In this document: positions 59,357 through 61,874 of the stretch, piece by piece
Layout: every line of letters starts with the position of its first letter
Position numbering within the stretch: the first letter of the stretch is position 1
DNA from: Agarivorans albus
GTDB lineage: Bacteria > Pseudomonadota > Gammaproteobacteria > Enterobacterales > Celerinatantimonadaceae
Direction: 5' to 3'
NCBI RefSeq assembly: GCF_019670105.1
Contig: NZ_AP023032.1
Coordinates: 2,288,972 to 2,352,971 of the forward strand
Length of the DNA: 64,000 nt
The notes under the pieces: generated by a model
Database searches by the model: none
What the model was told of the DNA's origin: nothing
What the model saw: only the letters and a program-made list of their open reading frames with translations
Made by a program: the position numbers and the translations under genes

Positions 59357-59833
59357 ATGGCTAAAATTGAATTTGTAAGTTTTAACCAGGTAGAACCAGC
59401 AGATCTTCTGCTTGTAGTTAATGAGCCAGCTTTGAGAACACACTTAGTAGATCATGAATATTTTGATTCCGTTAGCATCAAACAATGGATGATAGGTAAA
59501 GCTCAAACAGATTCGATAGCTGGTTGCCGTGTTCGAGTTGTTAATATAGATGGAGTTGTCGCTGGCTGGTGTGGGATTCAACCAGACGATAATGGTTATG
59601 AAATAGCGATAGTTGTTTCTAAAGAGTATTGGGGATTCGGCATATCAATATTCAATTCAATGATGGCTTGGGCCAAAGAGCTTGGGCATAAAGAAGTCGT
59701 GTTTCATTTACTAGAAACTCGACCTGAGTATAAGGCGTTGAAAAGAAGGGCCATTAAAGTTCAGAAAACAGAACTTTTGGATCGAAGCTTTACCACATAT
59801 TTTATATCGGTAGATAAATGGTGTGCAAAGTAA
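59357..59833 (+). CDS. GNAT-family N-acetyltransferase
   Basis: 158 residues. The acetyl-CoA region is EIAIVVSKEYWGFGISIFNSMM, close to the usual R/QxxGxG/A loop but with GFGIS, and is preceded by an AGWCGI strand. Substrate unknown. It follows the MarR gene by 66 bp on the same strand. Confidence 0.8.
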   Translation: MAKIEFVSFNQVEPADLLLVVNEPALRTHLVDHEYFDSVSIKQWMIGKAQTDSIAGCRVRVVNIDGVVAGWCGIQPDDNGYEIAIVVSKEYWGFGISIFNSMMAWAKELGHKEVVFHLLETRPEYKALKRRAIKVQKTELLDRSFTTYFISVDKWCAK

Positions 59834-59945: not shown

Positions 59946-59973
59946 ATTTAACATAATATACATTATGCGCCTT
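59946..59973. other. dif site (XerCD chromosome-dimer resolution site)
   Basis: Read on the minus strand the 28 bp are XerC arm AAGGCGCATAA, central TGTATA, XerD arm TTATGTTAAAT. The E. coli dif site has the same last 25 bp without a mismatch; only the first three outer XerC-arm bases differ. XerCD with FtsK resolves chromosome dimers here, so the replication terminus is in this window. Confidence 0.93.
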
Positions 59974-60032: not shown

Positions 60033-61322
60033 TTACTTTAAGTGATCCAAAGGCTTATGTTCAGCAGATTGATGGCGTTCTACGCGAGATGTGTGCAAAT
60101 ACTGAGACGTTGTATCAATGCTGTCGTGTCCGGCATCGGCTTGTACATGTGACAATGGCCGACCTACTAAATTTATGTCGTGTGATATTCCGGTGTGTCT
60201 AATGCTGTGTGGCGTAAGTTGGCGTATCTCATTAGCGTCTTGCTTAAAGCCATCCGCCTCGGCGAGCTTAGCCGCTTGTTCAATGAGAATGTAGATTTGC
60301 TCTCTTAATTGGCGAATACCAAGATTGGCATTAAGTAATCCGCTATCTCTACCGCGTCCAGCTGCTCGGTGCCTTACAAACAATGGTGTTTTTTCATTGG
60401 GTGTTGGCAGCGGCGTTAGTTGTAAAAATCGTCGATAGCGTTGTAAGGCATCTAATAATTGCTTAGACACTGCAACGGTTCGCTTTTTCCCACCTTTGCT
60501 ACGCGGTATATAAAAGCCCCATACGGAGGTTTTAGTATCACGTTTAAACTGTCCCATTATCGGCGAAAAGCCTGGCCTAGCTGCTACTTCAGAGATTCGT
60601 AAATAGCAGCTGTACATAAGGCTAACTAAAAATAAAATACGCTCGTTTTCCTCTGGTGTTTGTTTAGCAAGTTGATTAGCGGCACTCATTACATAAGACC
60701 ACTGTAAGTCACTAAAGGATTTAATGTCTTCTAGATCTTCGCCACTAATAGTGTGTTGGCTGCTAGCTTTAAATCGGCCGTTCTTCATTAAAGCCATGGC
60801 TGGGTTACGCTCTGTATATTCTTCATTAATTAGATAGGCATAAAACGAAGATAAAATCGCTAATTTGGTTTTTAAGGCTTTATCACTTATTTGATATGGC
60901 TGCTCAATACCGTCTATTTTCTTACCTAAAAACGGCCGCCATTGTAGATTTGGCACACGTTCTTTCAGCTGTTTATCGACAACAAACTGAGCAACATTTC
61001 GATAAGCGATTAGCTCTAGCGGCGGCTTACTGCAATAGTCTAAATACTTACTTAGTACCCGTCGTGTCACCACTGATAAGGAGATTTGCTCAACAGTATA
61101 AGCCCAGTGTAAAAAGCTGGTTAGTTCGCTTCGGTAGGTTTTGTAATTGTTTTCACTATGACGCTGTTCTAACAACCAATCTACTGCGTATTCGTAAATA
61201 AATCCGGCATCGCTAACGGCGCTTAAAGTAACTTCTGCCAGATGTTGGTTAACGATAGCATTGCCATCTTCAAGATATTGAATGGAATCGAACAGAGGAA
61301 TGGCTGGCGGAAGTGTTAGCAT
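60033..61322 (-). CDS. Tyrosine recombinase/integrase beside dif
   Basis: 429 residues, longer than XerC or XerD (about 300). An N-terminal SAM-like core-binding domain (about 45-190) precedes the catalytic domain: first Arg in CYLRISE, Lys in RSKGGKKR, HxxR in TPHSIRHTG, GH in DAGHDS and the tyrosine in SQYLHT. All catalytic residues are present. No phage, transposon or cargo genes are attached. Its gene ends 60 bp from the dif site, a position that suggests an Xer-related insertion history, or chance. A 9-bp hairpin at 61374-61397 is just upstream. Confidence 0.9.
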   Translation of the reverse strand: MLTLPPAIPLFDSIQYLEDGNAIVNQHLAEVTLSAVSDAGFIYEYAVDWLLEQRHSENNYKTYRSELTSFLHWAYTVEQISLSVVTRRVLSKYLDYCSKPPLELIAYRNVAQFVVDKQLKERVPNLQWRPFLGKKIDGIEQPYQISDKALKTKLAILSSFYAYLINEEYTERNPAMALMKNGRFKASSQHTISGEDLEDIKSFSDLQWSYVMSAANQLAKQTPEENERILFLVSLMYSCYLRISEVAARPGFSPIMGQFKRDTKTSVWGFYIPRSKGGKKRTVAVSKQLLDALQRYRRFLQLTPLPTPNEKTPLFVRHRAAGRGRDSGLLNANLGIRQLREQIYILIEQAAKLAEADGFKQDANEIRQLTPHSIRHTGISHDINLVGRPLSHVQADAGHDSIDTTSQYLHTSRVERHQSAEHKPLDHLK

Positions 61323-61517: not shown

Positions 61518-61874
61518 ATGAATTTAAAAAATGAACTTCAATCAATTCACAACAAACTAGACACGGCAAAACGTAAGTTAGATGCCGCCCACGAACGTGG
61601 TGACACTGTGATGATTAATCAGTTCAATACTACAATTACTGCACTTACTAAAAAGCTTAAAAGTGTAAAAGCCCAGCAAACTAAGAAGTTAAGTCAACAA
61701 GGCGGTGACGTTAAGTCCCTTCCCTTTAGCCGCGTTCTTACAAAAACAGAACAAGCAGATATGGGTAAGTTGAAGAAATCGGTTAAAGGTTTGGTGGTAG
61801 TACATCCAATGACAGCCTTAGGCCGTGAAATGGGCATTAAAGAAGTTACTGGATTTGCCCCAAAAGAGTTTTAA
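61518..61874 (+). CDS. yibL: YibL-family ribosome-associated protein
   Basis: 118 residues (E. coli YibL 120). The N-terminal 60 residues are a coiled coil rich in Lys. The C-terminal block TKTEQADMGKLKKSVKGLVV and the following HPMTALGREMG match YibL closely. YibL cofractionates with ribosomes in E. coli but its function is not established. A terminator follows. Confidence 0.9.
   Translation: MNLKNELQSIHNKLDTAKRKLDAAHERGDTVMINQFNTTITALTKKLKSVKAQQTKKLSQQGGDVKSLPFSRVLTKTEQADMGKLKKSVKGLVVVHPMTALGREMGIKEVTGFAPKEF

What the first reader, a model, noticed from the sequence alone, without database searches (positions are those of the whole stretch)
59946..59973. Chromosomal dif site: the window spans the replication terminus
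25 contiguous bases equal those of E. coli dif, including the whole XerD arm and the central TGTATA; only three outer XerC-arm bases differ. Such a match is very unlikely by chance. It means that the window crosses the change of replichore, so strand bias and FtsK-orienting sequences should flip near 59960.
Basis: partly seen in the sequence, partly recalled or inferred. Interest (0 to 1): 0.85.

Follow-up and report, generated by a model that had tools for sequence, protein, structure and literature searches.

The report
Chromosome dif site beside conserved recombinase
The 28-base site is the ordinary chromosome-separation site (dif) of a marine Agarivorans bacterium, sitting where the two halves of the chromosome meet; the unexpected part is a conserved extra recombinase gene 60 bases away that stays next to dif in dozens of related species and appears undescribed.

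Summary
Window 59946-59973 (minus strand) matches E. coli dif at 25 contiguous bases; only the first three XerC-arm bases differ. It is the only copy in the 4.79 Mb single-contig genome (genus Agarivorans). It lies 49% of the way round from dnaA. KOPS point right before it and left after it, switching between 57334 and 61717. XerC, XerD and FtsK-gamma are encoded. GC skew also changes sign, but gradually: the cumulative maximum is 23 kb past dif. So the window does span the terminus. As a dif site this is ordinary.

It is neither XerC nor XerD. Homologues of at least 52% identity occur in Agarivorans, Aeromonadaceae, about three quarters of Shewanella species and other families. In all 91 genomes where both lie on one contig, dif is on the 3' side of the gene, 36 times within 250 bp. 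Catalytic residues are intact and dN/dS is 0.015-0.03 among close relatives. Its function is untested. I favour a resident recombinase acting at or near dif; a passenger kept by synteny is not excluded.

The parts
59946..59973 (-). dif, 28 bp: AAGGCGCATAATGTATATTATGTTAAAT
   Evidence: 25/28 to E. coli dif, single copy in the genome
59963..59973 (-). XerC arm AAGGCGCATAA (first three bases differ from E. coli)
   Evidence: read from sequence by alignment to E. coli dif; binding not tested
59957..59962 (-). central region TGTATA
   Evidence: identical to E. coli dif
59946..59956 (-). XerD arm TTATGTTAAAT
   Evidence: identical to E. coli dif
60033..61322 (-). dif-linked tyrosine recombinase (429 aa), 3' end facing the XerC arm of dif
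   Evidence: PF00589 47 bits; catalytic Arg, Lys, His, Arg, His, Tyr positions invariant in 54 family members; Xer-like fold; linkage to dif in 91/91 same-contig genomes
57334..57341 (+). last KOPS (GGGCAGGG) pointing right towards dif
   Evidence: G000:C1:2346305-2346312
61717..61724 (-). first KOPS (GGGAAGGG) pointing left towards dif
   Evidence: G000:C1:2350688-2350695
61518..61874 (+). DUF2810 (YibL-like) gene, 5' neighbour of the recombinase in all five intact Agarivorans loci
   Evidence: PF10928 117 bits; synteny
59357..59833 (+). GNAT acetyltransferase, neighbour on the XerD side (variable side)
   Evidence: PF00583; present there only in window and G005

Best explanation
Window 59946-59973 is the functional chromosomal dif of this Agarivorans chromosome. 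XerC and XerD, switched on by FtsK arriving along convergent KOPS, recombine sister dif copies there to resolve chromosome dimers. Shown here: the site, its uniqueness, its position opposite dnaA, the convergent KOPS, the skew change, and the presence of xerC, xerD and an FtsK gamma domain. Inferred from homology: XerCD binding and the reaction. Beside it sits a separate, conserved tyrosine recombinase whose gene is kept next to dif. My working model is that it is a catalytically active resident enzyme acting on dif or on DNA next to it (for example on elements inserted at dif, or as an auxiliary resolvase), fixed long ago from a dif-targeting element or a large-plasmid resolvase. That last part is inference, about 0.5 likely. 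The confidence below is for the dif statement.
For: 25/28 match, unique in the genome. Contig begins at dnaA and dif is at 49.0% of its length. KOPS 94:1 plus:minus before dif and 8:79 after it, switching inside a 4.4-kb interval that contains dif. GC skew +0.047 and -0.052 on the two sides. XerD 397 and XerC 360 bits, both over the NCBIfam cut-offs of 330 and 335; FtsK gamma 92 bits. The same site with the same XerD arm in 249 of 296 genomes of the order. For the recombinase: dif 3' of it in 91/91 genomes, at most 31.5 kb away, 36 within 250 bp; dN/dS 0.015-0.03 within Agarivorans.
Against: No binding or recombination experiment. Base 3 of the XerC arm is G where T is usual. The skew maximum is 23 kb off. 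No canonical matS was found (no exact site, fewer near-matches than the reversed control), so Ter macrodomain organisation by MatP is not supported. For the recombinase model: plasmid homologues do not sit by a dif-like site as a rule, a quarter of Shewanella species lack it, and some other genes of the dif neighbourhood are also kept across families.
Confidence: 0.97

Rival explanations
1. The recombinase is a passenger: a once-mobile integrase that landed beside dif in an ancestor and has stayed only because this part of the terminus keeps its gene order.
For: Of 55 protein clusters within 8 kb of dif, seven others recur in three or four of five host groups, so some ancestral synteny exists. 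The int side is syntenic within Oceanisphaera/Oceanimonas while the far side of dif is not. Some species have broken copies (G005, G301, G347).
Against: It is the only cluster in all five groups and in all 28 loci, though the loci were partly chosen for it. Very strong purifying selection with all catalytic residues kept. dif stayed 3' of the gene while its orientation flipped at least five times on the tree. More distant homologues in other families also lie within 10 kb of dif in 8 of 23 genomes.
Confidence: 0.35
2. The dif site and recombinase together form an integrated mobile element (IMEX) with its own integrase.
For: An integrase next to an att-like site is the usual layout; IMEX insertions at dif are common in relatives (hybrid dif sites in L053, L085, L092, L097, L098).
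Against: Only one dif copy exists in this genome. In relatives the insertions lie between the recombinase and dif and do not contain the gene. The gene is present in all sampled Aeromonadaceae and Agarivorans and its tree follows host groups. No close phage homologue (best 26%).
Confidence: 0.05
3. The 25-base match is chance or a decayed, inactive dif.
For: Three XerC-arm bases differ.
Against: No chance match in shuffles, no second site, exact KOPS switch, conserved position in relatives.
Confidence: 0.01

Closest known systems
E. coli chromosomal dif / XerCD-FtsK system
   Same: Same 11-6-11 layout, same centre and XerD arm, unique site at the KOPS and skew switch opposite dnaA, XerC, XerD and FtsK gamma encoded.
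   Different: First three XerC-arm bases AAG instead of GGT; an extra tyrosine recombinase gene adjoins the site; no canonical matS found.
Single-recombinase modules XerS/difSL and XerH/difH
   Same: A tyrosine recombinase gene genetically linked to the dif site; XerH and XerA are among the closest solved folds (Z about 17-19).
   Different: Here the site is a canonical two-recombinase dif and separate xerC and xerD genes are present; the linked protein is longer (429 aa) and scores only 29 bits against XerS.
IMEX (integrative mobile elements exploiting Xer) and dif-targeting integrases
   Same: Act at dif; relatives carry such insertions between the recombinase and dif with hybrid sites.
   Different: The recombinase lies outside those insertions and is fixed in whole genera.
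Large-plasmid tyrosine recombinases (e.g. on pSbal01 and Vibrio megaplasmids)
   Same: Same protein family at 50-59% identity over full length.
   Different: No dif near them in 8 plasmids, except one weak dif-like site 98 bp 3' of the gene on pIFL1_1.

Membership tests
chromosomal dif site | 28 bp with 11-bp XerC arm, 6-bp centre, 11-bp XerD arm | tested here: met
   25/28, all differences in the three outer XerC-arm bases
chromosomal dif site | one copy per chromosome | tested here: met
   one match at up to 3 mismatches in 4.79 Mb
chromosomal dif site | lies where KOPS converge | tested here: met
   switch between window 57334 and 61717
chromosomal dif site | near the GC-skew switch opposite the origin | tested here: met
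   dnaA at contig start, dif at 49.0%; skew maximum 23 kb away
chromosomal dif site | host encodes XerC, XerD and FtsK with gamma domain | tested here: met
chromosomal dif site | XerCD bind and recombine it; deletion gives dimer phenotype | not testable with these tools
   needs bench work
XerC or XerD (for the 60033-61322 protein) | NCBIfam TIGR02224 / TIGR02225 cut-off | tested here: not met
   60.9 and 56.6 bits against cut-offs 335 and 330
catalytic tyrosine recombinase (for the 60033-61322 protein) | R-K-H-R-H-Y catalytic set | tested here: met
   R242, K276/K279, H372, R375, H399, Y408 invariant in 35-54 aligned members
XerS/XerH single-recombinase module | recombinase gene linked to its dif | tested here: met
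   about 60 bp here; 91/91 genomes on the 3' side
XerS/XerH single-recombinase module | replaces XerC and XerD in the genome | tested here: not met
   xerC and xerD both present
IMEX integrase | gene lies between two dif-like attachment sites | tested here: not met
   single dif in the genome; insertions in relatives exclude the gene

The most novel reading that the evidence does not exclude
Many gammaproteobacteria (Agarivorans, Aeromonadaceae, most Shewanella and others) encode a third, dif-linked tyrosine recombinase that acts on dif or on DNA joined to it, alongside XerC and XerD: for example as a backup or regulator of dimer resolution, or to remove or control elements inserted at dif.
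Probability: 0.3. Interest if true: 0.7.

Novelty: new member of a known kind. Interest (0 to 1): 0.4.

Why it matters
The dif site is routine, but it fixes the terminus of this chromosome. The neighbouring gene matters more: XerCD is treated as the whole recombinase complement at canonical dif sites, and a strongly constrained, catalytically intact third recombinase kept beside dif across several families would be a new component of terminus biology, with a simple deletion test in laboratory Shewanella.

Tried and rejected
A second dif or half-site in this genome: none at up to 3 mismatches. MatP sites: canonical matS not found. A conserved recombinase target other than dif in the gap between gene and dif: gaps of 18-200 bp are not alike between genera; a shared ACAGGCAAACTT stretch is limited to Agarivorans and a few others. 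A dif-like site beside the plasmid homologues: absent in 7 of 8 plasmids. Phage origin: best phage match 26% identity. A solved close relative: no sequence match in PDB. Literature: no paper found that describes this gene by dif; PMC2731167 notes only that 14.2% of dif sites are flanked by transposase or integrase genes. The library lacks most subscription journals.

Full report
1. Observation. The minus strand of window 59946-59973 reads AAGGCGCATAATGTATATTATGTTAAAT. E. coli dif is GGTGCGCATAATGTATATTATGTTAAAT (PMC2731167). Bases 4-28 are identical. No shuffle of the window gives a match at 3 mismatches. The site is the only one in the 4,792,255-base single-contig genome. The closest named relative of the neighbouring gene is in Agarivorans sp. 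Toyoura001, and the contig of that record (201,105 bases) is also the contig of same-genus genome G005, so the genus is Agarivorans.

2. Terminus. The contig starts at dnaA-dnaN-recF-gyrB (read from the translations), and dif is at 49.0% of its length. KOPS: 102 plus and 80 minus in the genome; all 94 listed plus sites lie before dif with a single minus site, which leaves 8 plus and 79 minus after it (the tool lists only the first 100 places, the rest follows by subtraction). The last plus KOPS is at window 57334 and the first minus KOPS of the right arm at 61717. GC skew is positive in every 20-kb sample left of dif and negative in every sample right of about 2,369,000; the 60 kb from 2,309,000 to 2,369,000 is near zero, and the cumulative maximum is at 2,372,241, 23 kb past dif. 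XerD, XerC and FtsK gamma are present.

3. The neighbour. The 429-aa protein at 60033-61322 (minus) ends about 60 bp from dif. Pfam finds Phage_integrase and an N-terminal SAM-like domain. It falls far below the XerC and XerD cut-offs. An AlphaFold model (mean pLDDT 84.6, pTM 0.58) matches archaeal XerA (Z 18.9), XerH (Z 17.5), Tn1549 integrase (Z 17.0) and Cre (Z about 15) over both domains. The low pTM and high rmsd with some chains mean that the domain arrangement is uncertain. Catalytic residues R242, K276/K279, H372, R375, H399 and Y408 are invariant. dN/dS against three close Agarivorans species is 0.015-0.03, as low as for other conserved neighbours.

4. Linkage to dif. In 296 genomes of the order, 74 have a homologue at E<=1e-30. 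Counting only homologues of 52% identity or more with dif on the same contig, 32 genomes from the order sample, 6 further Shewanella and 53 of the Shewanella sample give 91 genomes. In all 91 dif lies on the 3' side, at most 31.5 kb away; 36 are within 250 bp; 81 have the same relative orientation and 10 the opposite. Eleven draft genomes have the two on different contigs and cannot be judged. In G003 the contig ends inside dif, right after the gene. The gene is present in all 24 sampled genomes of f25 (Aeromonadaceae), all 7 Agarivorans (broken in G005), all 5 of f15 genus g18, and 59 of 77 Shewanella. The tree groups it by host genus and needs at least 5 changes of dif orientation (quick tree, partial support).

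5. What lies between gene and dif when they are far apart. Several such genomes carry a hybrid dif-like site right after the gene (for example L092 CCGCGCATAATGTCCGGTTTGGTTAAAT, L097, L098, L085, L053), the mark expected of an element inserted at dif by XerCD. The gene is outside these insertions.

6. More distant homologues (29-43%). Of 23 such genomes, 8 have dif within 10 kb, on the 5' side in most. The others have no dif within about 6 kb. On plasmids the family occurs at 50-59% identity without a dif; a dif-like site with 2 mismatches lies 98 bp 3' of the gene on pIFL1_1 only. Close phage homologues were not found.

7. Caution. The dif neighbourhood keeps some other genes across host groups (seven other clusters in three or four of five groups), and the 28 loci of that test were partly chosen because they hold the gene. 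The linkage is therefore real, but part of it could be inherited gene order. No result here shows that the protein touches dif.

8. Verdict. dif: confirmed, ordinary, a new instance of a known kind. Recombinase: an apparently undescribed, conserved, dif-linked gene, worth a deletion experiment.

Noticed in passing
L216-L224 (genomes G233, G280, G130, G075, G243, G298, G271, G091, G223; family f27, 2.2-2.9 Mb, possibly Orbaceae by size and AT-richness, a guess): dif is paired with a second, inverted dif-like site 0.14-2.5 kb away that keeps the centre and XerD arm but has a degenerate XerC arm, XerD arms always outward. In several drafts the sequence outside both sites is the same inverted repeat at a contig end, as if the inner segment occurs in both orientations: a possible Xer-invertible segment at the terminus.
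   Followed up: partly
61 non-redundant dif loci, positions just outside the 28-mer: Conservation extends past dif: T at positions 5, 7 and 9 beyond the XerD arm (80, 72, 56%) and an A-rich stretch outside the XerC arm.
   Followed up: no
L053, L060 (G005, Agarivorans sp. Toyoura001): A 13-kb insertion lies between the recombinase gene, which is broken there, and dif. Genes on the XerD side are 94-99% identical to the window while the recombinase is only 74-85%, so the two sides of dif have different histories.
   Followed up: partly
L004 (G000:C1:3344210-3344815) and L005 (G000:C1:3897948-3898508): Two further tyrosine recombinases of the genome are integron integrases by NCBIfam.
   Followed up: no
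whole genome G000: Canonical matS sites are missing: no exact match, and fewer one-mismatch places than for the reversed pattern.
   Followed up: no
L039 (Marinobacterium arenosum contig of 16.5 kb): A 76% identical recombinase beside a dif in a different order; horizontal transfer or contig contamination.
   Followed up: no
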